Below, one piece after another: positions 33,634-44,449 of a stretch of 64,000 nt of DNA; positions within the stretch are counted from its first letter, which is position 1; each line of letters begins with the position of its first letter. A model generated the notes under the pieces. The model was not told the DNA's origin. It did no database searches and worked only from the letters and a program-made list of their open reading frames with translations. This stretch comes from Cellulomonas dongxiuzhuiae (GTDB lineage: Bacteria > Actinomycetota > Actinomycetes > Actinomycetales > Cellulomonadaceae): the NCBI RefSeq assembly GCF_018623035.1, contig NZ_CP076023.1, forward strand, positions 2,666,001 through 2,730,000, read 5' to 3'. The position numbers and the translations under genes were made by a program.

Positions 33634-34830
33634 TCACGACGTCGGGTCCAGGACGACCTTGATGCAGCCGTCCGCCTTGCGCTGGAACACGTCGTACGCG
33701 TGCGGCGCCTGCTCGAGGGACACGCGGTGCGTGCGCAGGTCGGCGACGGCCAGCGGGTCGGACGGGTCGGTGACCAGGGGCAGCAGGTCGTCGTACCAGC
33801 GCCGCACGTTGGCCTGACCGAACCGCAGGGTGAGCTGACGGTCGAACACGTCCATCATCGGGATCGGGTCCAGCGCGCCGCCGTACACCCCGACGACCGA
33901 CACGGTCGCCCCGCGACGCGCCACGGCGATGGCCGTGTGCAGCGCCGCCATGCGGTCCACCGCGGCCCGTTCGATGAGGGGCCGCGCGAGCGTGTCGGGC
34001 AGGAACGCCGCGGCCCGCTGCCCGGCGGCCGCGAGCGGCGAGCCGTGCGCCTCCATGCCGACGGCCTCGACGACCGCGTCCGCGCCGCGACCGTGCGTGC
34101 GGTCGCGCACCGCGGCGACGACGTCGTCGGTCCGGGCGGCGTCGATGACGTCGACGCCGTGCCGCGACGCCATGAGCAGCCGCTCCGCGACGAGGTCGAT
34201 GCCGATGACGCGCTCGGCGCCGCGGTGCAGCGCGATGCGCGCGGCCATCTGGCCGATCGGGCCCAGGCCCACCACGGCGACCGTGCCGCCGGGCGGCACG
34301 TCGGCGTACGCGACCGCCTGCCATGCGGTGGGGAGCACGTCCGACAGGTAGAGGTACGTCTCGTCCGGCCGGCCGTCGTCCGGCACCACGACCGGCCCGT
34401 ACTGGGCCTGCGGCACCCGCAGGTACTGCGCCTGCCCGCCCGGCACGCTGCCGTAGAGCGAGGTGTAGCCGAACAGGGCGGCGCCCTTGCCCGCGCCGCG
34501 GACCTGCGTCGTCTCGCACTGGCTCTGCAGACCCAGCGCGCACATGTGGCAGGTGCCGCAGGCGATGCCGAAGGGGACGACGACCCGGTCCCCCACGCGC
34601 AGGCGCGTGCCCGCCTCCGCCCCGACCTCCTCGACCACGCCCATCGCCTCGTGACCGAGCACGTCACCGGGCTTGAGGTACGCACCGAGCACCGAGTACA
34701 GGTGCAGGTCGGACCCGCAGACGGCCGTGGACGTCACGCGGATGACCGCGTCCGTCGGTTCCTCGACGCGCGGGTCCGCCACGTCCTCGACCCGCACCTG
34801 CTCGCGTCCCTGCCACGTCAGCGCCCGCAC
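33634..34830 (-). CDS. Zinc-dependent alcohol/formaldehyde dehydrogenase-like protein
   Basis: Medium-chain dehydrogenase of 398 residues. Catalytic zinc ligands appear in TAVCGSDLHLY and GHEAMGVVEEVG; the structural zinc site is CGTCHMCALGLQSQC. The Rossmann motif is VVGLGPIGQMAARIAL. The long region after it, with GTVAVVG upstream and HTAIAVARRGATVSVVGVYGG downstream, resembles the glutathione-independent formaldehyde dehydrogenase branch. The GTG at 34830 is where the family begins (RALTWQGREQVRVEDV); a weak AGGACGG lies upstream. It heads a run of minus-strand genes with the epimerase. Divergent from the secreted repeat protein at 35015. Confidence 0.87.
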   Translation of the reverse strand: MRALTWQGREQVRVEDVADPRVEEPTDAVIRVTSTAVCGSDLHLYSVLGAYLKPGDVLGHEAMGVVEEVGAEAGTRLRVGDRVVVPFGIACGTCHMCALGLQSQCETTQVRGAGKGAALFGYTSLYGSVPGGQAQYLRVPQAQYGPVVVPDDGRPDETYLYLSDVLPTAWQAVAYADVPPGGTVAVVGLGPIGQMAARIALHRGAERVIGIDLVAERLLMASRHGVDVIDAARTDDVVAAVRDRTHGRGADAVVEAVGMEAHGSPLAAAGQRAAAFLPDTLARPLIERAAVDRMAALHTAIAVARRGATVSVVGVYGGALDPIPMMDVFDRQLTLRFGQANVRRWYDDLLPLVTDPSDPLAVADLRTHRVSLEQAPHAYDVFQRKADGCIKVVLDPTS

Positions 34831-35014
34831 CTGTCCACCGTCCTGTCGCTCGTTGCTCGTTCGTCGCCACCGTGGCACCCGTCCGCCCGGCGCGCATCCG
34901 CAGACGGCCGACCCGCGCGCCCCCGGGCGGGACGGGTTCGCGCGACGGCTCCACATCCGCGCCGCGAGCCGCGTTTCCACGGTGCACGCGGTCACCCGAA
35001 CCAGGAGGAACACC

Positions 35015-35563
35015 ATGAACGCGACTCCCGCCCGCACCCCCGCCCGGCACCGACGGGTCATCGCCGTCGGCGCCGTCGCCGCCGGTCTCTCCGTGGCCTG
35101 CGCGGGAGGAGCGATGGCCGTCGCACCCGGGTCCGCCGTGTCCCGCACCCTGTCGGGTGCCCTGCAGAGCGTCGGCATCGAGTGGCAGGGCATGCCCGAG
35201 GGCTACACGCCCGAGCAGTACACGGCGTTCTGGGACGCCGGCTACACGTGGGGCGACGCGCAGCACCTCTCGGAGCTGTGGCAGCTCGACATCATCGAGA
35301 CCAAGTCCCAGGCGGGCCGGCTGCTCGCCGACGGGCAGACCCTGCCGATCACGCCCGGCACCTACCCCGAGGCGGGCGCCGACCCGCAGTCCGTCGCCCT
35401 CGACGCCTTCTGGTCCGTCGGGTACACCTACGAGGACGCCGAGCAGCTCGCCGCCCTGTGGGGCGTCGACGTCTCCGAGACCAAGGCGCGGGCCGGGCAG
35501 GCGCTCGTCGACGGGCAGACGCTGCCCGTCGAGCCGAGCGGCACCGCCACCACGGGGTCCTGA
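35015..35563 (+). CDS. Secreted protein with two copies of a ~45-residue aromatic repeat
   Basis: I do not recognise the family. The 182-residue precursor has a basic N-terminus, a hydrophobic core (VIAVGAVAAGLSVACAGGAM) and a probable cleavage site near AMAVAPG. The mature part holds two repeats of about 45 residues: repeat 1 from about residue 62 (FWDAGYTWGDAQHLSELW, then ETKSQAGRLLADGQTLPI) and repeat 2 from about residue 127 (FWSVGYTYEDAEQLAALW, then ETKARAGQALVDGQTLPV). Consensus: W-x-x-G-Y-x-x-x-D-A-x-x-L-x-x-L-W, then E-T-K-x-x-A-G-x-x-L-x-D-G-Q-x-L-P. Excellent AGGAGGA ribosome site. Two diverged copies occur at 44051-44449. Confidence 0.8.
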   Translation: MNATPARTPARHRRVIAVGAVAAGLSVACAGGAMAVAPGSAVSRTLSGALQSVGIEWQGMPEGYTPEQYTAFWDAGYTWGDAQHLSELWQLDIIETKSQAGRLLADGQTLPITPGTYPEAGADPQSVALDAFWSVGYTYEDAEQLAALWGVDVSETKARAGQALVDGQTLPVEPSGTATTGS

Positions 35564-35613
35564 CCCGATGACGTCCGGCATGCTGGGGCACCGCCACCGC
35601 GAGGAGACGACCA

Positions 35614-35627
35614 TCGACACGTGTCGA
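35614..35627. promoter_or_regulatory. Perfect 14-base palindrome
   Basis: TCGACACGTGTCGA, a perfect dyad with no loop, 50 bases after the secreted repeat gene. Too short for a terminator; it looks like a dimer-binding operator. The CACGTG core is not assigned to a known actinobacterial regulator here. Confidence 0.35.
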
Positions 35628-35824
35628 GATGCACGACAGATTGATCGAAGCCGAGCGTCGTACTCTGACCACGAGCGCGCCGACGGGGCCGGTCGGTCAA
35701 AGTAGGCATTGGCAGTGCCGACCTTCAGGCTGAAGGTGCGAATGGCCGCAACCGTAAGGACGCTGCTCGCCATCGACTACGCGTCGTCAGGCGCCGGGGC
35801 TCCTGCCGACCAGCTAGGTCGCGA

Positions 35825-35873
35825 CGCTCGAGCGGGGACTCACGCGCATTCCGGCGCTCTAGCTGGGACTCAC
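35825..35873. repeat. Two 19-base imperfect direct repeats with 30-base period
   Basis: Copy A at 35825-35843 and copy B at 35855-35873 agree at 17 of 19 positions (CGCTCGAGCGGGGACTCAC against CGCTCTAGCTGGGACTCAC). The 30-base period is near three helical turns, so proteins on both copies would face the same side of the DNA. Too few copies for an iteron or CRISPR array. Confidence 0.5.
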
Positions 35874-35914
35874 TGCGTTACACCGACACCAGTGATTCTG
35901 CGGTTGTCGGCGGG

Positions 35915-36079
35915 CTAGCTGAGGATCCGGCTCGTGGTGGCGTCGAGGCCGGTCGTGCGGGCCAGGAGCCAGAACGTCAGCACGGCCAGCGCCGGCGCGA
36001 CCACCCAGCGCTCGAGGGCGTGGTCGGGTATTCCCGCCGTCGTGCGAGCCGCCGCCGCGAGGACCGCCTGGCCCGGCAC
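35915..36079 (-). pseudogene. Possible remnant of a small membrane-protein gene
   Basis: A 54-codon minus-strand frame from GTG (36079) to TAG (35915). The product has a helical polar half ending in DHALERWVV and one hydrophobic segment (VAPALAVLTFWLLA) before a short tail. A stop codon lies two codons upstream of the GTG and there is no ribosome site, so it looks like the 3' end of a larger, lost gene rather than an intact one. Coding nature is uncertain. Confidence 0.3.
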
Positions 36080-36157
36080 GTATCACCGGCGCCGACCGCG
36101 TGCCCCTTCCCGAGAGTGTGAATGAGCACACTCAGCGGCCCGGCCCGAGGAGTCAGC

Positions 36158-37054
36158 GTGGAACCGACGGTGGTGTACGTGCACGGCATCGGCAACAAGC
36201 CGAGGCGTGAGGCGCTGGTGGCGACGTGGAACACCGCGCTCGCGCTGCGACCCGCGGTCGGCGCACAGATGGCGTACTGGGCGGACCTCCGGTATGCGAG
36301 CCCGCTGCCCGGCGGTGGGCTCGAGGGCTTCACGGACGGCGGTCTCGCGGCGGGCGGCGGCGCCCTGGAGGCCGGTGGGGTCGAGCCCACGGAGGCGTTC
36401 GTCGAGAAGACCGCCGTCGAGCTCGGCGGCCTCGACGCCTCGGCCGCCCCGCTCAAGGGCGTGCTCGAGCGGATGGCCTATGCCGCCGACGCCGCCGCGT
36501 CCGGCTCCGACTCGCTGCCCGACGACTTCGAGGTCATCCCAGGGCCGAAGTTCCTGCGGGTGGCCGCCTTCCGCGCGCTCGTGAAGGCCACGCTGCACGA
36601 CGTGCACGCCTACTTCTTCGACCAGGCCCAGGCCGAGGCGATCCGCGACCGCGTGCGCGCGGTGCTCGACGACGCCCACGGGCCCGTCGTCGTCGTCGCG
36701 CACAGCCTCGGCACGGTCGTCGCGTACGACGTCCTCAGCGAGCCGCGGTTCGCCGGGCTCGACGTGCCGCTGCTCGTGACGCTCGGCAGCCCGCTCGGCA
36801 TCCAGGAGATCCAGGACCAGGTCAAGGGCCGTCCGCTCGCGGTGCCCCCGTCGGTCGGCGCGTGGCTCAACGCGGCCGACGCGGCCGACGTCGTGGCGCT
36901 CGACCCGACGATCCGCCCCGAGTACCGCCCGGCGGACAAGTGCTCCGACGCGCTGGTGGTGAACCGCAGCGCCAACCGTCACGGCATCGCGGAGTACCTG
37001 GCGGCCGACATCGTGCGGCGCACGATCGCGAAGCACGTCGGGCGACCGGTCTGA
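36158..37054 (+). CDS. Alpha/beta-hydrolase, first gene of the conflict operon
   Basis: A 298-residue soluble hydrolase. The first strand and oxyanion region is VVYVHGIGNKPRREAL; the nucleophile elbow is VVAHSLGTVVAYDVL with S183; LLVTLGSPLGI follows as in lipases and PGAP1-like proteins; a late NRHGIAEYL supplies a plausible catalytic histidine. A long helical insertion (about residues 55-125) could form a lid. No signal peptide. I chose the GTG at 36158, which has GAGGAG seven bases upstream; the ATG at 36122 lacks a site. Four bases separate it from the protease gene. In this setting an effector that attacks lipids or acyl-modified molecules is likely, but that is inference. Confidence 0.8.
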   Translation: MEPTVVYVHGIGNKPRREALVATWNTALALRPAVGAQMAYWADLRYASPLPGGGLEGFTDGGLAAGGGALEAGGVEPTEAFVEKTAVELGGLDASAAPLKGVLERMAYAADAAASGSDSLPDDFEVIPGPKFLRVAAFRALVKATLHDVHAYFFDQAQAEAIRDRVRAVLDDAHGPVVVVAHSLGTVVAYDVLSEPRFAGLDVPLLVTLGSPLGIQEIQDQVKGRPLAVPPSVGAWLNAADAADVVALDPTIRPEYRPADKCSDALVVNRSANRHGIAEYLAADIVRRTIAKHVGRPV

Positions 37055-37058
37055 GTCG

Positions 37059-38132
37059 ATGGCGCTCACCGGACGGCAGTGGAAGCAGTTGAGCGACGCG
37101 CTGCGGCAGGCGTTCACTCTCGCGCGCTTCGACGAGCTGCTGCGCTACTCGCAGAACCGCAACCGCGAGGACATCGCGCTCGGCGGCGACTACCAGGAGA
37201 TCGTCTTCCGGGTCATCCAGACGGCGGAGGCCGAGGGCTGGACCATGAGGCTGCTCGCCGCGGCGCGCGAGGCCCGGCCGGGCAACGCGGAGTTTCTCGC
37301 CGCCGCGATGGACCTCGGGCTGGCGTCCGCCACCCCGGACCTCGAGACGCGGGTGCGCCAGGACGCCCCGTTCGTCGATGTCACCGCGTGGCGCGAGACG
37401 CTCGGCCGGCGTGAGGCGCAGGTGTGCCGCGTCGAGGTCGACGCCGGCGTGCACTCGGGCGTCGGCACCGGCTTCCTAGTCGGGCCCAATCTCTGCCTCA
37501 CCAACCACCACGTCGTCGCGGCGCTGCTCGACGGCCACGCGACGCCCGCCGACGTCATCCTGCGGTTCGACTACAAGCGTGCGCAGGGGGTCATCGTCAG
37601 CGCGGGGACGGAGCTGCGGCTCGCGCCGGCCGACTGGCTCGTCTCCTCGGCGCCGCCCGGCGCGGCCGACTCCGCGGCGGACGGCTCCCTGCCGTCACCG
37701 GACGAGCTCGACTACGCCTTGCTACGCCTCGCCGGGCGCCCCGGGGAGGAGGCCACCGGTCGCGCCGTCGCCGATCCGCAGGCGACGCCGCGCGGCTGGT
37801 TCGGCGGGCTCGGCCAGGGACCGGCCGACGGGTCGCCGATGCTCGTGCTGCAGCACCCCGAGGGCGCGCCCCTCAAGCTATCGCTCGGCTCGAGCGGCTC
37901 CGTCAACGCCAACGGCACCCGCGTGCGCCACCTCGTCAACACCGAGCCCGGCTCGTCGGGATCGCCGTGCATGGACGCGCGGCTCGACGTCGTCGCGCTG
38001 CACCACGCGGGCGACGGCACCCGCCCCCCGGGTCCCGGCCCGGCCTCGAACGGCGCCGTGCCTCTCAGCGCGGTCGTCGACCACCTGCAGCGCACCGGCT
38101 GCACCGAGAAGATCCTCACCCCCAGCGTCTAG
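37059..38132 (+). CDS. EAD-fused trypsin-like serine protease
   Basis: A 357-residue two-domain protein. Residues 1-75 form an all-helical effector-associated domain (EAD1-like) with the pattern LRQAFTLARFDELLRY, DIALGG, IVFRVIQTAEAEGW and the end motif RPGN. From about residue 120 a V8/trypsin-type protease follows: GTGFLVG, then CLTNHHVV with catalytic H151, ELDYALLRL with D218, and TEPGSSGSPCMD with S300. The triad is complete. No signal peptide, so it should act inside the cell. EAD-protease fusions are known from NTP-dependent biological conflict systems, where the EAD recruits the effector to a switch ATPase. The ATPase gene next to it carries a similar EAD. Confidence 0.87.
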   Translation: MALTGRQWKQLSDALRQAFTLARFDELLRYSQNRNREDIALGGDYQEIVFRVIQTAEAEGWTMRLLAAAREARPGNAEFLAAAMDLGLASATPDLETRVRQDAPFVDVTAWRETLGRREAQVCRVEVDAGVHSGVGTGFLVGPNLCLTNHHVVAALLDGHATPADVILRFDYKRAQGVIVSAGTELRLAPADWLVSSAPPGAADSAADGSLPSPDELDYALLRLAGRPGEEATGRAVADPQATPRGWFGGLGQGPADGSPMLVLQHPEGAPLKLSLGSSGSVNANGTRVRHLVNTEPGSSGSPCMDARLDVVALHHAGDGTRPPGPGPASNGAVPLSAVVDHLQRTGCTEKILTPSV

Positions 38133-38143
38133 GTGGCCCGTCG

Positions 38144-39244
38144 ATGCCCGCCCTTATCCTCACCGGAATCGTCATGCAGCACCTCGCGTACGCCCTGGCC
38201 GTGGCGTATCCCGAGCGCAGCGCCCTGCAACGTGTGCTCTTCGAGCGGACCGGCCGACGCCTCGACGACATCGTCAGCGTGAACGTCGGCAACACGGACA
38301 TGCGGCAGCAGCTGCTCATCGCCGCGAGCGACGGCGGCTGGGCGACGGAGGTCTTCCAGCTCCTCCAGGACAGCGAGAACCTCAGCGTGCGGCAGTACGT
38401 GCGCCTCGCGCGGGACGCGTTGGACGTGGTGTCGAACGCCGTGGTCGACCGCGAGGATCCGTTCCTCGTCCACCGCGTCGCCGGCCGGCCGTTCCTCGAC
38501 CGCACCGAGCTGCGCAAACAGCTCACCGAGCTCCTGGCGCGCGACGAGAAGCGGGTGCTCGTCGTCACCGGCGAGCGGCCGTGCGGCAAGACGTACGCGT
38601 GGCCGTTCCTGGACACCCTCGGTCGGACGCACGGATTCGACCCGGTACTGATCGACGTCGCGAGCCTGCCCGCCACCGAGCGCATGCCGGTCGACGTCGT
38701 GAGCAACGTCGCGCGGCAGCTCGGGCTGCCGAGGCTACCCGAGGTCGACCCGCTCGCCCAGGGCGCCAGCCAGGCGCAGCGGCTGTTCACGTGGCTCATC
38801 GGTGAGGCACGCCTCGCGCGGCAGTCCGGCGCGGCGTCGCGCTGGCTCCTCGTCATCGACAGCCTCGACAAGTTCCCGCTGCCGGCCGAGACGGAGGAGC
38901 TCTTCGTGCTCATGGGCAAGGGCGCCGCCGAGAACCGGATCGCCGACCTGCGGGTGGTGCTGCTGGGCTACGAGCACCAGCTCCCGGTCGACCTGTCGAG
39001 CTGGGTGCTCACGGACACGTTCAGCGACATCGACGAGCGCGCGCTGCGCGACTACTTCGACTTCCTCCTGAGGACCGCGCGCGGCGGCGGCATCGGCCCA
39101 ATGAGCGCCGACACCGCGATCGAGGACGCGGTGCGGCAGGTCGAGGAGGCGCTCGCCGGAGCCGACCGGGTCGACCGGTTCAGCCGCCTCGCGGCCGAGG
39201 TGGACCGGGTGGGACGCGCGCTCCAGGACGCGAGGACCCGGTGA
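38144..39244 (+). CDS. EAD-like domain fused to a small P-loop (AAA/STAND) ATPase
   Basis: A 366-residue protein. Residues 10-85 resemble the EAD of the neighbouring protease: LAYALAVAYPERSALQRVL, then LDDIV, then QLLIAASDGGWATEVFQLLQ. An ATPase follows from about residue 120, with Walker A GERPCGKTY (K149) and Walker B WLLVIDSLD (D239). A late helical part ends in a run of Arg/Asp-rich helices. The protein is shorter than usual STAND NTPases and has no repeat sensor of its own, which suggests that it works with the large STAND protein encoded next. The ATG at 38144 is 11 bases after the protease stop. The gene ends in a four-base overlap with the next start. Confidence 0.82.
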   Translation: MPALILTGIVMQHLAYALAVAYPERSALQRVLFERTGRRLDDIVSVNVGNTDMRQQLLIAASDGGWATEVFQLLQDSENLSVRQYVRLARDALDVVSNAVVDREDPFLVHRVAGRPFLDRTELRKQLTELLARDEKRVLVVTGERPCGKTYAWPFLDTLGRTHGFDPVLIDVASLPATERMPVDVVSNVARQLGLPRLPEVDPLAQGASQAQRLFTWLIGEARLARQSGAASRWLLVIDSLDKFPLPAETEELFVLMGKGAAENRIADLRVVLLGYEHQLPVDLSSWVLTDTFSDIDERALRDYFDFLLRTARGGGIGPMSADTAIEDAVRQVEEALAGADRVDRFSRLAAEVDRVGRALQDARTR

Positions 39245-42087
39245 TGAACGCGACCGGCTGGATGCGGCCCGCCGGGGTGGGGCGCGGGTTCGCCGACGCG
39301 CCCGAGGCGCTGCACGCTTATCTGCGCGCCGCGGCGATGCTCTCGAACTTCGACCCCATGGAGTTGCGGCCCCTCGACGGCGCCGACGACCCGAAGGCGC
39401 TCGAGCAGCTCCTCGAGCTCAGCGAGCCCGTGTTCTCCCGGCGGATCCCGCCCGGACGCTGGCAGCTGCCCGACTCGCTGCGCCGGTCGGTGCTGCGCTC
39501 GATGCGCGGCACGCCGGACCTGCACCGCGCCGTCGCCGCGACCACGGCGACCGACACCCCGGAGCAGGGGGCGCTGCGCCGCTACGTCGAGGGCGCCGCC
39601 GCGCCGATCGAGGGCCAGTCGGTCGAAGAGCTGCGCGCCAGCGCCCAGGCCGTCGCCTGGCTCGACGGGGTCGTCGACGGGCTGCCGTCGCTCGAGGACA
39701 TCGGGGCGCGCCTCGCCCTGCTGGAGCTGCTGGCGCCGCTGCGCCGGCTCGTGGGCGACCACTTCGCGGGGCGCGAGGAGGTGCTCGACCGGCTCGCTGA
39801 CCACGTCGCCGTCCTGCCCCCCGGCAGCCGGCTGCACTCGGTGCGGCGGCGCGTGCGTGAGGTGCTGTCGCTGCGCGACCACCCGCCGCTGTGCCTGTGG
39901 GGGCCGGGCGGCGTCGGCAAGTCGACCGTCCTCGCGAAGTTCGTGCTCGACCACGTGGACCTCGCCGACGACCAGGTGGCGTTCGTCTACGTCGACCTCG
40001 ACCGCGCCGGGCTCACGGTGTACGAGCCGCTCACGTTGCTGCACGACGGCCTGCGCCAGCTCGCGTTGCAGTTCCCGTCGATCCGCGACGAGGCGGAGGA
40101 GCTCCGGCAGGAGTGGGCAGAGGAGATGGAGGCGCCCGACGTCAGCACCTACAGCACCGCGGTGCTCGGCGCGCACCACCCGCAGGGGCCGCGCGCCACG
40201 GGCGTCGACCGCGGCCGGTTCTACGCCCAGTTCGCCCGGCTGGTCGCGGCGGCGGCGCCCGACCGCCCGCTGCTGTTCGTCGTCGACACCTTCGAGATGG
40301 CGCAGCGCCGCGGCGCGGACGTCGTGGCCGACGTGTGGGCGTTCCTCGACGGCCTGCAGGCGCACGTCCCGACGCTTCGGGTGGTCGTCGCGGGGCGCAA
40401 GGGCCTGCGCGAGGACGGGCTGCGCAGCAGCGATCTCGCGCTCACCGAGTTCGACCCCGCGTCGGCGCGCGCCTACCTCAGCCGAGCCCTCGGCGGCGCG
40501 CTCGCGCCGGATGACCCGGTGCTGCGCCGCGTCGTGACGATCGTGGGCCGCAACCCGCTGAGCCTCGGCCTCGCCGCGCAGCTGCTCCAGCTCGAGGGGG
40601 TCGACGCGCTGCGGGCCGGCGAGCCGCACCTTGTGTTCCTCCGGCTGCACGAGGGCCAACTCCAGGGCGTCCTCTACCGCCGCATCCTCGACCACATCGA
40701 GGACCCGGTCGTGAAGAAGCTGGCCTACCCGGGGCTCGAGGTCCGCAGGATCACGCCCGGGATCGTGCGGCACGTGCTCGCCGGCCCGTGCGGGCTCGAC
40801 GTGCCCGACGACGACGCCGCGCGCGAGCTCGTCGCGGCGGCCGCGCGCGAGGTCACACTGCTCGACCGCGCCGACGACGGCTCGCTGGTCCACCGCCCCG
40901 ACGTGCGCCGACAGATGCTCGCGACGCTGCGCCAGGGTGACCCGGCGCGGGTGCGCGCGATCGACGAGGCCGCCGTCGCCTACTACGCGCAGGCCGACGA
41001 CCTCACCTCGCGCGCCGAGGAGATCTACCACCGGCTCGTCCTCGACCAGCCTCGCGAGGTGCTCGACGCCCGGTGGCTCGGCGGCATCGAGCACCACCTG
41101 TGGGGCGCGCTCGAGGAGCTGTCGCCGAACGGCGCCGTCTACCTCGCGTCGCGGCTCGGCACCGCGCTGTCCCCAGAGCTCACGAGCCAGGCGGAGCAGA
41201 GCGTCTGGGAGCGGCACGCGCAGGCCCACGCCGCCCGGCTGCTCGAGCGGGAGGATCCGGCCGGGGCGCTCGCGGTGCTCCGCGAGCGCACGAAGCGACT
41301 GCACGGCAGCCCGCTGCTCGCGCTCGAGGCGCGAGCGCTCGAGGACCTCGGCCGGTTCGGGGAGGCCAGCCACACGCTGCGGCGCGCGGGCGCCGAGGCC
41401 AGCGACCTCGGGCACACGCGTGACGTCTTCCGCGCCCTCTACGGTCAGGCGCTGCTCGCGCACCGGCTCGGTGACCGAGCCGGGGCGCTCGCGCGGCTCG
41501 AGGAGTGCCGCGTCGTGGCCGCGCGCGTGGACGAGCCCATCGACAACCTCCGCCTCGCCACGCTCGACCTGCTCGTGCACGAGGCGGCCGGTGACGTCCG
41601 GGAGATGGACCGGGTGCACCTCGCCGCGGTCCTGGCCGACACTCCCCGCGCCGAGCTGCGCCGCGACCGCAGCCTGCTCGCGGAGGTCGCGGCCGCGGTC
41701 GGCGGCATGGACTCGCAGATCATCGGCGAGGCGCTGCGGGCCGTCGGGCTCCAGTCGCTGCTCGCGGTGGAGCGGCGACGGCTGGCGCAGGTGCTCGCGC
41801 GGTGGGACGCGCGGCTCGACGGCCGGCTGGCCGACGCCGCACACCTGCCGCCGCCCGAGTCGCCGTCGGAGCCGGCCGAGGACCCGGGAGCCTGGGAGCT
41901 GTGGCTCGAGGCGTCGACGCTGCCCACGGTCGCCGGCTGGATCGCGTCCGCGCTGTCGTCCTACCCGGGCGGGGAGGCCGTCAGCGCGGAGGTCTCGAGG
42001 CTCTACCGCGCCTGGCTCGACGAGGGGGCGCAGCCGTCGGCGCCGCCCCCGCAGGACAAGGCGTCCAAGTGGCGCGCGAAGCGGTGA
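39241..42087 (+). CDS. Large STAND-type NTPase with helical-repeat (TPR-like) C-terminus
   Basis: A 948-residue protein built as N-terminal helical region (about 1-170), NTPase module (about 185-480) and a helical-repeat tail (about 560-880). Walker A is LWGPGGVGKSTVL (K227); Walker B is LLFVVDTFEM (D349); a winged-helix-like segment comes near residues 495-600 (PGIVRHVLAG, VHRPDVRRQM). The tail has alternating Ala/Leu/Arg-rich helix pairs such as EREDPAGALAVLRERT and DRAGALARLEECRVV, as in TPR superhelices. STAND proteins are switch-like sensors that oligomerise on ligand binding. GTG (39241) and ATG (39244) both overlap the preceding stop. Last gene of the operon; likely senses a phage or stress trigger. 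Confidence 0.87.
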   Translation: MMNATGWMRPAGVGRGFADAPEALHAYLRAAAMLSNFDPMELRPLDGADDPKALEQLLELSEPVFSRRIPPGRWQLPDSLRRSVLRSMRGTPDLHRAVAATTATDTPEQGALRRYVEGAAAPIEGQSVEELRASAQAVAWLDGVVDGLPSLEDIGARLALLELLAPLRRLVGDHFAGREEVLDRLADHVAVLPPGSRLHSVRRRVREVLSLRDHPPLCLWGPGGVGKSTVLAKFVLDHVDLADDQVAFVYVDLDRAGLTVYEPLTLLHDGLRQLALQFPSIRDEAEELRQEWAEEMEAPDVSTYSTAVLGAHHPQGPRATGVDRGRFYAQFARLVAAAAPDRPLLFVVDTFEMAQRRGADVVADVWAFLDGLQAHVPTLRVVVAGRKGLREDGLRSSDLALTEFDPASARAYLSRALGGALAPDDPVLRRVVTIVGRNPLSLGLAAQLLQLEGVDALRAGEPHLVFLRLHEGQLQGVLYRRILDHIEDPVVKKLAYPGLEVRRITPGIVRHVLAGPCGLDVPDDDAARELVAAAAREVTLLDRADDGSLVHRPDVRRQMLATLRQGDPARVRAIDEAAVAYYAQADDLTSRAEEIYHRLVLDQPREVLDARWLGGIEHHLWGALEELSPNGAVYLASRLGTALSPELTSQAEQSVWERHAQAHAARLLEREDPAGALAVLRERTKRLHGSPLLALEARALEDLGRFGEASHTLRRAGAEASDLGHTRDVFRALYGQALLAHRLGDRAGALARLEECRVVAARVDEPIDNLRLATLDLLVHEAAGDVREMDRVHLAAVLADTPRAELRRDRSLLAEVAAAVGGMDSQIIGEALRAVGLQSLLAVERRRLAQVLARWDARLDGRLADAAHLPPPESPSEPAEDPGAWELWLEASTLPTVAGWIASALSSYPGGEAVSAEVSRLYRAWLDEGAQPSAPPPQDKASKWRAKR

Positions 42088-42156
42088 GCCGCGGCGCCGC
42101 GACAGGCCCGGACGGTCCGCGCCGCACGGCCGGCCGGCGGGTGCCGGGTGTCGGGC

Positions 42157-42333
42157 TCAGGCGTCTGGCGCCGAGGCGGCCGCGGCGGCACGGGCGGCCG
42201 CCGGCAGCGCGTCGAGCACGCGGTTCACCGCGTCGTCGTCGTGCGCGGCGGAGACGAACCAGGCCTCGAACGCCGACGGCGGCGCCGAGACCCCGGCGTC
42301 GAGCAGCGCGTGGAAGAACGCACTGCTCGGGCG
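42157..42333 (-). pseudogene. hemL: hemL 3' fragment (glutamate-1-semialdehyde aminomutase C-terminus)
   Basis: The last 58 codons of a hemL-like gene, ending at a normal TGA (42157). Recognisable segments are [20 protein letters not shown], then [19 protein letters not shown] and PAAARAA, which is the C-terminal end of GsaM/HemL. Reading further upstream (above about 42333) the frame turns into Arg/Pro/Gly-rich non-homologous sequence, so the remaining ~380 codons are missing. HemL is needed for tetrapyrrole synthesis, and a full copy must exist elsewhere if the organism makes heme. The truncation point marks the left edge of the 42.33-44.06 kb block. Confidence 0.8.
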
Positions 42334-42439
42334 ACGGGGTCCACGCTCTGGCCTGCCGCCCGGTGCGCACGGGTCGCGAGGTCGGCAAGCTCTTAAGCTG
42401 CGGCGTTCTCGCCGCGCTCGGCCACAACACACGGACGGC

Positions 42440-43525
42440 CTGACGCTGCGCACCGGCGTCGAGATCGAGCTGCGCGCACCTGCGGGCTCCGACCGGCAGG
42501 CGCTGGCCGACGTCCTCGCCGCCCGGAGCGGCGGCGCCGTGCGGCGGTCCTTCCACACCGACAGCGAGCCGTCGGCCGTGCCGGGCGTCGGTGTCTTCCG
42601 GCACCTGTCCCCCGCCTTCGACGTCGTCGACGGGCGCGGGCGGCCGCTCGCCCGCCTCGTCGACGACGTCACCATCGAGGCGGACCTCGTCCCGGTGCCC
42701 GGCAGGCGCGACCTGCCCGGGCACCGGGGCTGGTACCGGGTGCTGTGCGACGACCCGCGTCTCCTGCGTCTCGTCGAGCGGCACGTGGACCCGCAGGCGT
42801 CGCTCGCCGACGTGCTGCGGCCCGTGGCCGACCTGTTCGGTACCACGCTCGACGTGTTCCCCGGCGCCGCGCGCGTCAACGACGCGACCGGCGCGAGCAT
42901 CGCGGTGGCGATGGCCCTGCCACCGGGCCGCGAGCGCCCCTGCGAGATCGTGACGCCCCCGCTCGAGCGGGCGCACGCCCGCACGCTGGAGAACCTGCTG
43001 GCACCGGCGCGCGACCTCGGGTTCACGGTGCCCCACGAGGCGGCGGTGCACGTGCACGTCGACGGGGTGCCGTTCCGCCGGCCGGAGTCGTTCGCCAACC
43101 TCGTGCGCCTCTTCGCGCACTGGCGCGAGCCCCTGTGGGAGGCCCTGGGCACCAACCCCGCCTGCCGCCGGCTCGCGCCCCTCCCGGACGCGCTCGTCGA
43201 CCTCGTCGAGCAGGACCGTCCGGCGACGCCCGACGCCTGGGCGCAGCTGCAGCGCGACGCGCGCGCCGTCGGCCTGACCAAGTACGCCGACGTGAACCTC
43301 ACGCAGCTGGTGGCCGCACGGCCCGTGCGCGACACCGTGGAGGTGCGCGTCCTGCCCTGTTCGATCGACGGGCACGACGTGGTCCGCCGTGCCCGGCTCG
43401 TCGAGCGTCTGCTGCTGTGCTGCCTCGACGCGCGTCCCGTCCCACGGCCGGACGCGGACGCCGCGCACGACGCCGCCGGGGCGCTCGACGCCCTCGCGGG
43501 CGGGCACCCGGCGGTGGCGCGATGA
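42440..43525 (+). CDS. Putative amidoligase, 5' end apparently missing
   Basis: Member of the amidoligase family (ATP-grasp-related carboxylate-amine ligases, linked to peptide or murein modification). About 361 residues remain. The opening strand [17 protein letters not shown] contains the conserved Glu pair; [20 protein letters not shown], then [16 protein letters not shown] with the catalytic block, [20 protein letters not shown], and [10 protein letters not shown] follow. No ATG, GTG or TTG start is in frame for at least 130 bases upstream, and upstream is antisense to the hemL fragment, so the true 5' end is probably lost. The start given (CTG) marks only where similarity begins. Its last four bases overlap the sigma-factor start (ATGA). 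Confidence 0.72.
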
Positions 43526-44058
43526 GCGTGTGGACCACCACGTCCCCCGACAGCGCCGCGATCCCGGCGGTCCGGCCGCTGCGCGCGCCGACGGGCGCGA
43601 CGTCCGCCGGCACCAGCTCGCCCGGGCACCACCTCGACGAGGTCGTGCGCGCCCACCTGCCCGGGCTGCTGCGGTACGCCACCGTGCTGACGGGTGACGG
43701 GCACACGGCCGCGGACCTCGTGCAGGAGGTCCTGCTGCGCGCCCACGTGCGCTGGACGCGCATCGGCCTCCTGGAGCGCCCCGACCTGTACCTGCGTCGC
43801 ATGGTCACCAACGAGCACCTGTCGTGGCGGCGACGGTGGCACGTGCGCACGGTGCACCCGTCGAGCGACGACGTGCTGGCCGCACACGCCGACCCGGCAC
43901 GCGACCACGCCCACCGCGTGGTCGAGGACGACGCGATGTGGCGTCGCCTGTCCGAGCTGCCCCCGCGGCAGCGCACCGTCCTCGTCCTGCGGTACTACGG
44001 GGGCCTCGCCGACCCGGAGATCGCCCAGGTCCTCGGGACGTCCGCCGCGACCGTACGA
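43522..44058 (+). pseudogene. SigE-type ECF sigma factor, truncated in region 4
   Basis: An ECF sigma factor coupled to the amidoligase by an ATGA overlap. Region 2 is clear: [34 protein letters not shown], and [17 protein letters not shown]. Region 4 has [20 protein letters not shown] and then [14 protein letters not shown]. After that the frame runs into unrelated sequence; the expected recognition helix (a short Ser-His-Ala-Ser-Arg-type segment) is missing, and the reading frame continues in Gly/Arg-rich nonsense to about 44631. The following 390 bases code for a secreted-type repeat in the +1 frame. Likely nonfunctional as it stands, unless a sequencing indel is responsible. Confidence 0.78.
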
Positions 44059-44449
44059 GGCGTTGTGGGGTGCGGGCTACGAGATGGAGGACGTCACGGC
44101 GCTCGAGGAGCTGTGGGGCACGGACACGACGGAGACGAAGGCGCGGGCCGGGCAGCTGCTGCTCGACGGGCGCAAGCCGCCCGTCGCGCCCGGCACCGTC
44201 GCGCCGGGCACCGTCGCGCGCAGCACCGGCGCACCCGGCACCGAGGCTCCCGGCGCCGGGGCGACGGCCGTCACCGGCGCCCGGCTGGAGGCGCTGTGGG
44301 CGGCGGGCTACGTGTGGGAGGACGCGCTCGCACTGGCCGACCTGTGGGACGTCGACGTGAGCGAGGCGAAGGCGCGCGCGGCGGTCGCGGTCGCCCAGGG
44401 CCAGGCGCTGCCCCTGCCGCCGTCCGGTCCGCCCGGGGGCGACGGCTGA
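44051..44449 (+). pseudogene. 5'-truncated gene with two more copies of the aromatic repeat
   Basis: About 132 codons in the +1 frame relative to the sigma gene, ending at TGA 44447-44449. Two repeats match those of the protein at 35015: [18 protein letters not shown] with ETKARAGQLLLDGR, and LWAAGYVWEDALALADLW with EAKARAAVAVAQGQALP. A Thr/Pro/Val-rich linker of near-identical short units (APGT) lies between. No signal peptide or start codon precedes the first repeat; a secreted precursor's 5' end has been lost at the junction. The 18-base string AAGGCGCGGGCCGGGCAG is identical in this copy and repeat 2 of the 35015 gene. Confidence 0.72.

What the first reader, a model, noticed from the sequence alone, without database searches (positions are those of the whole stretch)
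36158..42087. Four-gene NTPase-protease-hydrolase conflict operon, likely an undescribed defence system
The genes are packed with gaps of 4 and 11 bases and a 4-base overlap. They encode an alpha/beta hydrolase, a trypsin-like protease with an N-terminal effector-associated domain, a small P-loop ATPase with a similar N-terminal domain, and a large STAND NTPase with a helical-repeat sensor. Established knowledge: EADs and trypsin-like effectors are parts of NTP-dependent biological conflict systems, and STAND NTPases such as the Avs proteins sense phage. The combination of two distinct NTPases with two hydrolytic effectors in one operon is not one I can place in a named system.
Basis: partly seen in the sequence, partly recalled or inferred. 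Interest (0 to 1): 0.88.

Follow-up and report, generated by a model that had tools for sequence, protein, structure and literature searches.

The report
Inflammasome-like operon with lipase-like gene
A bacterium has acquired a four-gene operon built like a simple inflammasome: an NTP-driven sensor is predicted to switch on a protease, which in turn would unleash a lipase-like enzyme against the cell itself, probably to stop viruses; it is an unusual variant of a recently described kind rather than a wholly new one.

Summary
The four genes are real and as described. They sit in a 6.8 kb insertion: in four same-genus genomes the flanks are continuous, and the insertion cuts an amidoligase reading frame. 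The operon can be placed. Its core (trypsin, small ATPase, STAND NTPase) recurs in 29 of 29 fetched loci of one Streptomyces-like genus: as separate genes, as an ATPase–STAND fusion (8 of 29) or as an ATPase–STAND–trypsin fusion (8 of 29). Plasmid relatives have a 601-aa trypsin–ATPase protein, a STAND and a NucA nuclease, or a 662-aa trypsin–NucA protein. That is the layout published for LypABC, a CARD–NLR-like system. The window therefore looks like a CARD–NLR-type system with LypA split in two and an alpha/beta-hydrolase (G1) as death effector. Relatives of G1 occur in 14 of 25 type A loci, three of them without NucA, and beside caspase-like and trypsin–NucA genes in the window's own genus. 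Phage defence is untested. New variant of a known kind.

The parts
35623..42430 (.). Inserted segment (about 6.8 kb) carrying the operon; ACACG at both ends (short target duplication or microhomology)
   Evidence: blastn of window 28000-50000 against four same-genus loci: 35621 is contiguous with 42431 (42429 in one) in 4 of 4; junction sequences
36158..37054 (+). G1: alpha/beta-hydrolase, 298 aa, predicted effector. S183 and H275 invariant, D244/D249 candidates; length-variable segment about 52-105
   Evidence: searches (PGAP1 9.7e-5; invariant residues; 46-50% to four relatives), (segment 54-91 aa in the 7 rows measured, window included)
37059..38132 (+). G2: EAD1 plus trypsin-like serine protease, 357 aa, predicted activating protease
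   Evidence: EAD1 4.3e-20 (residues 1-83), Trypsin_2 3.1e-13 (136-314); GSSGSP serine S300, TNHH histidine
37059..37307 (+). EAD1 adaptor domain of G2
   Evidence: the only EAD1 match at E <= 0.01 in the genome
38144..39244 (+). G3: small P-loop ATPase, 366 aa, with N-terminus at the EAD1 position; Walker A GERPCGKT intact
   Evidence: (profile of five small ATPases matches the C-terminal domain of the Polaromonas trypsin-ATPase protein, 96.6%)
39241..42087 (+). G4: STAND NTPase, 948 aa: conserved N-terminal domain, ATPase (K227), C-terminal half possibly TPR-like; predicted sensor
   Evidence: AAA_16 1e-9; alignments; N-terminal domain shared with both Streptomyces types (95.5% and 97%)
42182..42320 (-). 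Fragment in the tail of the insert, 86% identical to a place elsewhere in the same genome; its minus-strand translation reads like a HemL C-terminus (recalled)
   Evidence: translation of the minus-strand frame
35568..35622 (+). First 18 codons after the probable ATG of the host amidoligase gene, cut off by the insertion
   Evidence: the reading frame is continuous across the empty site in 4 of 4 relatives, with an in-frame ATG 18 codons before the junction
42431..43525 (+). Remainder of the host amidoligase gene (Amidoligase_2)
   Evidence: Pfam 2.9e-19

Best explanation
An acquired CARD-NLR-type abortive-infection (cell-suicide) operon. G4, a STAND NTPase, is the sensor. On recognising an invader signal it binds NTP and oligomerises. 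G3 (ATPase with EAD-like N-terminus) is a partner that joins the STAND oligomer. G2 (EAD1-trypsin) is recruited by adaptor contact with G3 and is activated by proximity. The protease then releases G1, a PGAP1/lipase-like alpha/beta-hydrolase, probably by cutting the variable segment at about residues 52-105, and G1 attacks membrane lipid or another cell component. Shown here: gene content, catalytic residues, conserved linkage, fusions, adaptor sharing in some relatives, effector swapping, recent gain. Inferred: sensing, oligomerisation, adaptor contact, protease activation, cleavage of G1, lipase activity, phage defence.
For: Trypsin and small ATPase lie beside the STAND gene in 29 of 29 loci of a Streptomyces-like genus selected on the STAND alone. 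Fusions: ATPase-STAND 8 of 29, ATPase-STAND-trypsin 8 of 29. Polaromonas PolTA (601 aa) carries trypsin plus a C-terminal ATPase domain that matches the G3 family (96.6%; blastp to G3 E 0.002; AAA_22 4.3e-5); Paraburkholderia has a 662-aa trypsin-NucA protein. These are the LypA and LypC layouts in PMC13236601. Trypsin and ATPase of one operon share an adaptor in two lineages: EAD1 in both in Paracoccus (8.3e-11, 2.4e-13) and in Streptomyces sp. t39 (2.5e-7, 1.6e-9); type B trypsin and ATPase N-termini match each other (hhalign 99%, five rows each). The effector slot varies: G1-type hydrolase in 14 and NucA in 20 of 25 type A loci; a DUF900-type hydrolase in 3 of 4 type B loci fetched plus L014; a PGAP1/LCAT-like domain on the STAND C-terminus in L014, L061, L063 and L064. 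In the window's own genus a G1-type hydrolase lies beside a caspase-like gene and a trypsin-NucA protein in 4 of 14 contexts fetched, and beside a subtilase and a trypsin in a fifth. Precedents: LypABC needs both peptidases, the LypB ATPase and the LypA ATP pocket for lysis; the AVAST protease cuts a gated pro-nuclease. Insertion into a gene and rarity in the family fit a mobile accessory system.
Against: No function was measured. EAD1 was not shown to have a CARD fold, a PDB profile search gave no CARD, and the N-termini of the Polaromonas and Caulobacter trypsins do not match EAD1 (4.3% and 1.3%). EAD1 in window G3 is sub-threshold. Adaptor sharing is not general: trypsin and ATPase N-termini do not match each other in type A (1.2%) or in Caulobacter (0.1%). 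The STAND N-terminal domain does not match EAD1 (0.2%). In LypC the endonuclease activity is dispensable for lysis, so the true effector there is unknown. G1-type hydrolases also occur away from any trypsin, STAND, small ATPase or NucA in 9 of 14 contexts tested, and 51 of 200 family genomes, the own one included, have one at E <= 1e-10. PADLOC gives only weak matches (best 6.4e-6, trypsin-like).
Confidence: 0.7

Rival explanations
1. A cell-lysis or release module rather than phage defence: like LypABC, the proteins control lysis for release of a particle or another programmed event, and the hydrolase aids lysis.
For: The nearest published architecture, LypABC, serves gene-transfer-agent release. 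The window's neighbours do not look like a defence island by gene calls.
Against: The operon is a rare insertion, which does not suit a standing lysis function. Two plasmid relatives lie near AbiE or PDC-M30/M41 genes. A gene-transfer-agent cluster was not looked for.
Confidence: 0.12
2. The trypsin is itself the toxic effector and cleaves host proteins (proteolytic suicide); the hydrolase is a separate regulator or second weapon.
For: Paracoccus and Caulobacter plasmid loci have trypsin-ATPase-STAND with no recognised hydrolase or NucA next to them, and 2 of 25 type A loci have neither.
Against: 23 of 25 type A loci add a hydrolase and/or NucA. The protease is one chain with the NTPases in 8 of 29 loci, a position more like a signalling enzyme (inference). 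In the precedents the protease activates an effector or is needed for lysis.
Confidence: 0.13
3. Selfish or decayed insertion with no present function.
For: The insertion cuts a host gene and carries a gene fragment in its tail.
Against: All four frames are intact with catalytic residues and tight spacing kept.
Confidence: 0.05

Closest known systems
LypABC / CARD-NLR systems (PMC13236601: abstract, sections 9 and 13 whole, passages; the founding Lysobacter gasdermin paper is recalled and not held)
   Same: Trypsin with a small N-terminal domain, an ATPase domain that goes with the trypsin, STAND/NLR-like NTPase with its own N-terminal domain, interchangeable death effector. Banks et al. state that phospholipases or endonucleases replace gasdermin in other variants.
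   Different: The window splits LypA into two proteins, keeps the Walker A motif in the small ATPase (LypA is reported to lack conserved Walker residues), has an alpha/beta-hydrolase and neither a second trypsin nor a nuclease in the operon.
System 3, NucA-trypsin conflict system (Kaur et al. 2020, PMC7159879: passages and sections 30 and 32)
   Same: EAD1-trypsin and STAND may occur together; proteolytic cascade proposed; type A relatives carry NucA and two trypsins; trypsin-NucA fusions occur in the window's genus.
   Different: No NucA in the window operon; the parts of the paper seen do not mention the small EAD1-ATPase or its fusions; the STAND described there has a trypsin and a Death-like domain at its N-terminus, which G4 lacks.
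AVAST type I (Avs1; PMC12799240: abstract, start of introduction, section 7)
   Same: Hydrolase gene, trypsin-like protease and STAND NTPase in one system; the protease cuts a gated effector.
   Different: Avs1a is a metallo-beta-lactamase-type nuclease; G1 is an alpha/beta-hydrolase. The extra ATPase is not in the description seen.
Caspase plus alpha/beta-hydrolase pair of VMAP ternary systems (Kaur et al. 2020, passages)
   Same: An alpha/beta-hydrolase accompanies a caspase; type A loci and four same-genus loci have a caspase or caspase-like gene near the G1 relative.
   Different: No MoxR, vWA or VMAP match in the four window proteins and no caspase match in them.

Membership tests
CARD-NLR (LypABC-like) | Trypsin-like protease with small N-terminal CARD-like helical domain | tested here: inconclusive
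CARD-NLR (LypABC-like) | ATPase domain associated with the trypsin | tested here: met
   G3 family matches the C-terminal domain of a 601-aa trypsin-ATPase protein, 96.6%; here it is a separate gene
CARD-NLR (LypABC-like) | STAND/NLR ATPase with own N-terminal domain and TPR-like repeats | tested here: inconclusive
   ATPase and N-terminal domain met (PolS 28% over 610 aa, 4e-25); repeats only weakly indicated
CARD-NLR (LypABC-like) | Interchangeable death effector gene | tested here: met
   G1 hydrolase present; the effector slot varies across relatives. That it kills is not tested
CARD-NLR (LypABC-like) | Direct sequence match to LypA/B or the Lysobacter proteins, or a DefenseFinder CARD_NLR model | not testable with these tools
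CARD-NLR (LypABC-like) | Protection against phage | not testable with these tools
   Needs an experiment
Kaur System 3 (NucA-trypsin) | NucA-type endonuclease in the system | tested here: not met
   No Endonuclease_NS match in the four proteins; present in relatives
AVAST type I | Metallo-beta-lactamase-type nuclease with the protease and STAND | tested here: not met
   G1 matches alpha/beta-hydrolase and related serine-hydrolase families only; no family listed as Avs in PADLOC matched the four proteins at E <= 1
MoxR-vWA-VMAP ternary system | MoxR ATPase, vWA protein and VMAP | tested here: not met
   None among the four proteins; neighbours were read only from gene calls

The most novel reading that the evidence does not exclude
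A proteolytically gated lipase: the protease cuts the variable segment of G1 and so turns a common alpha/beta-hydrolase into a membrane-killing effector, an inflammasome-like pathway in which the lipase takes the place of gasdermin. The same core in Streptomyces drives a composite death programme with caspase, NucA, hydrolase and two trypsins under one STAND, with the adaptor contact replaced by outright protein fusion in some species.
Probability: 0.3. Interest if true: 0.78.

Novelty: new variant of a known kind. Interest (0 to 1): 0.56.

Why it matters
It links two literatures. The EAD-coupling principle, predicted from sequence, and the experimentally studied CARD–NLR-like systems appear here to be one family: what is two EAD1-bearing proteins in Paracoccus and Streptomyces sp. 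t39 is one trypsin–ATPase chain in Polaromonas and one ATPase–STAND–trypsin chain in 8 of 29 Streptomyces-like loci. That makes the proposed adaptor contact directly testable. It adds a soluble alpha/beta-hydrolase as candidate effector, and shows the core in 28 of 295 genomes of a Streptomyces-like genus and in the window's genus. Whether DefenseFinder already lists these loci was not checked.

Tried and rejected
Wholly new system: rejected after the relatives and PMC13236601. AVAST type I: rejected, because G1 is not a metallo-beta-lactamase by Pfam. Chromosomal core function: rejected by the empty sites and family tally. Phage origin: no match to G3 in the phage records and one weak PHROG match, to G2 (7e-4); the other three genes were not searched in phage records. 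G166 weak match to G3 (66 aa, E 7.3e-4): in the 18 kb fetched (L090) only that ATPase match is seen, no trypsin, STAND, hydrolase or NucA. Protease specificity from sequence: not pursued, because the pocket alignment is unsure. Caspase, DUF900 and LCAT-like neighbours were classed by Pfam on examples only.

Limits: the genome search scored only 2 to 11 candidates per genome, so these tallies are lower bounds. The tree is a quick one with long branches, among them win_G4 and Paracoccus; their join with type B (94) is not firm. Of 30 distinct places, 29 were fetched (the second copy in G838 was left out). L059 is not counted as a triple fusion: one 1845-aa frame holds STAND and trypsin, but the ATPase match was not placed in the same frame. 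L061 ends at its trypsin, so its hydrolase cannot be judged. Hhalign used 25, 21 and 26 of 26 type A rows and 5, 5 and 4 of 5 type B rows for trypsin, ATPase and STAND; its EAD1 set had only three rows and failed to find type B EAD1s that Pfam finds (2.5-3.1%), so its negatives are weak. In one search, 11 hydrolase rows were used and 7 gave a segment length; the C-terminal 18 residues vary as much as the segment. In one search, 8 of 14 hydrolase contexts gave no gene by my caller; one search covers all 14.
Full report
Observation. G1 most likely starts at GTG 36158, which has a GAGGAG upstream and fits the alignment to four relatives. Two descriptions need softening: the EAD1-like N-terminus of G3 is below threshold in the window itself (E 0.11; 10.8% by hhalign), and the helical repeats of G4 are only weakly indicated.

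Genomic setting. The window lies in a single 3.98 Mb contig. Blastn of window 28000-50000 against four same-genus loci shows that position 35621 joins 42431 (42429 in one) directly in all four, with neighbouring blocks 80-95% identical. In those four the amidoligase frame is continuous across the site, with an in-frame ATG 18 codons before the junction. The operon therefore sits in a 6.8 kb insertion that cuts the amidoligase gene, with ACACG at both ends. I saw no recombinase in the gene calls of the insert but did not search for one. Its tail carries a fragment 86% identical to another place in the same genome. STAND profile searches find the system in 1 of 200 genomes of the family, 1 of 238 of the order and 2 of 396 of the phylum; the own genome is one of these each time, and few candidates per genome were scored. 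EAD1 occurs once in the genome at E <= 0.01.

Relatives. With a three-row STAND profile, 28 of 295 genomes of the genus of G551 match at E <= 1e-30. G551's genus is unnamed; I call it Streptomyces-like because its loci resemble these two. Of 30 distinct places 29 were fetched. All 29 have a related trypsin and a related small ATPase on the same strand near the STAND. Type A (25 loci) has the order [caspase, opposite strand]–NucA–hydrolase–ATPase–STAND–trypsin–second trypsin, with members missing from some: caspase is in 20, NucA in 20, the G1-type hydrolase in 14, NucA and hydrolase both in 11, hydrolase without NucA in 3, neither in 2; the second trypsin is in 24. Pfam on examples gives Endonuclease_NS (L052), caspase (L015, L037) and EAD5 plus Trypsin_2 (L015). 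Type B (4 loci plus L014) has DUF900-type hydrolase (3 of 4, and L014)–trypsin–ATPase–STAND, with a PGAP1/LCAT-like domain on the STAND C-terminus in L014, L061, L063 and L064 (Pfam on L014 and L063). The window has the gene order of type B but a hydrolase of the type A family (46-50% identity); in a quick tree its STAND goes with Paracoccus and type B (support 94, long branches).

Fusions. The ATPase and STAND are one chain in 8 of 29 loci, and ATPase, STAND and trypsin are one chain in another 8. On plasmids, Paracoccus has trypsin–ATPase–STAND as three overlapping genes with EAD1 on both trypsin and ATPase. Caulobacter rhizosphaerae has the same three without a Pfam EAD1. Polaromonas and Paraburkholderia have a trypsin protein of about 600 aa, a STAND, and a NucA or trypsin–NucA protein. 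The C-terminal part of the Polaromonas protein matches the G3 ATPase family at 96.6%; for Paraburkholderia the match is weak (16.9%). The second trypsin of type A matches the trypsin half of the Paraburkholderia trypsin–NucA protein (37% over 304 aa).

Link to the known. PMC13236601 describes LypA as CARD–trypsin–ATPase (domains at 1-80, 85-305, 324-592), LypB as N-terminal domain–ATPase–TPR and LypC as trypsin–endonuclease (endonuclease at 354-662). It reports that both peptidases, the LypB ATPase and the LypA ATP pocket are needed for lysis, that the endonuclease activity is not, and that gasdermins are replaced by phospholipases or endonucleases in other CARD–NLR variants. The Polaromonas and Paraburkholderia proteins have these layouts and sizes. 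By this chain G2+G3 correspond to LypA, G4 to LypB, and G1 to the death effector. I could not compare with LypABC or Lysobacter sequences directly.

The hydrolase. G1-type hydrolases are in 51 of 200 family genomes, the own one included, at E <= 1e-10. I fetched 14 such contexts (the 11 best-scoring after the own one and 3 further down the list). None has a STAND or small-ATPase match at E <= 1e-3; 9 have only the hydrolase; 5, all in the window's genus, have a trypsin nearby, and 4 of these also NucA. In those four (L107, L110, L111, L118) the hydrolase lies beside a caspase-like gene (Pfam C14 3.5e-4 and 0.0064 on two examples, under the cut-off) and a trypsin–NucA protein on the other strand (Pfam on L107 and L118). 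In the fifth (L119) it follows a subtilase (9.7e-42) and a trypsin. So the family is used both alone and with conflict-type peptidases.

Mechanism. Shown: intact catalytic residues; conserved linkage; adaptor sharing between trypsin and ATPase in Paracoccus, t39 and type B; one-chain forms elsewhere; swapping of effectors. Not general: type A and Caulobacter trypsin and ATPase N-termini do not match each other (1.2% and 0.1%), and the STAND N-terminus does not match EAD1. Inferred: STAND oligomerises on sensing; G3 joins it; adaptor contact brings G2 in; G2 is activated and cuts G1. G1 has a variable segment (about residues 52-105; 54-91 aa long in 7 rows, window included) between conserved stretches, which is where a gate could lie. 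AVAST is the precedent for a protease opening a gated effector.

Function in defence. Indirect only: STAND and EAD families; two plasmid relatives near AbiE (Caulobacter) and PDC-M30/M41 candidate genes (Paraburkholderia); rarity and insertion. PADLOC gives only weak matches to the operon.

Literature. Seen: PMC7159879 (passages, sections 30 and 32), PMC8195603 (passages), PMC13236601 (abstract, sections 9 and 13, passages), PMC12799240 (abstract, start of introduction, section 7), PMC10907252 (passages). In the listings of searches I recognised no paper on the hydrolase–EAD1 trypsin–EAD1 ATPase–STAND operon; the library lacks most subscription papers, including the founding CARD paper.

Verdict. 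A real, recently gained STAND operon with an EAD1 protease; most likely a new variant of the CARD–NLR kind with a lipase-like effector and a split LypA.

Noticed in passing
window 35568-35622 and 42431-43525: The insertion interrupts a host amidoligase gene 18 codons after its probable ATG; the frame is continuous in four same-genus relatives.
   Followed up: yes
L107, L110, L111, L118 (window's genus): A G1-type hydrolase beside a caspase-like gene and an opposite-strand trypsin-NucA protein, with no STAND match: a possible sensor-less or differently sensed relative of the system.
   Followed up: partly
window 42182-42320 (minus strand): Fragment inside the tail of the insert, 86% identical to 3774994-3775132 of the same genome; the translation reads like a HemL C-terminus (recalled), a possible trace of the donor site.
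   Followed up: partly
window 34673-35563 and 44046-44449: Two proteins with a repeated motif of the kind ALWxxGYxxEDAxxLxxLWxxDxxExKAxAGxxLxDG flank the insertion and amidoligase; the first has no Pfam match at E <= 0.01.
   Followed up: partly
window 44046-44057: About 440-465 bases present in four relatives are missing here, joining an ECF-sigma-like frame (by eye) to the repeat protein.
   Followed up: no
L011 12951-18885: Three tandem proteins of about 750 aa, alike at their starts, follow the Paracoccus operon; the two scanned have no Pfam match.
   Followed up: partly
L015 and L036-L060: Many of these Streptomyces-type loci combine caspase, NucA, alpha/beta-hydrolase, two trypsins and two NTPases in one neighbourhood, with the caspase gene on the opposite strand.
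   Followed up: partly
L091 4946-6301: The gene overlapping the start of the Caulobacter plasmid trypsin has no Pfam match but by eye looks peptidoglycan-hydrolase-like; it could be another effector in the same slot.
   Followed up: partly
G3 relatives: The small ATPase keeps the Walker lysine in the window, Paracoccus and t39 but has arginine there in MUM 178J, Caulobacter rhizosphaerae and the Polaromonas fusion (sequences, by eye), suggesting repeated loss of ATPase activity.
   Followed up: partly
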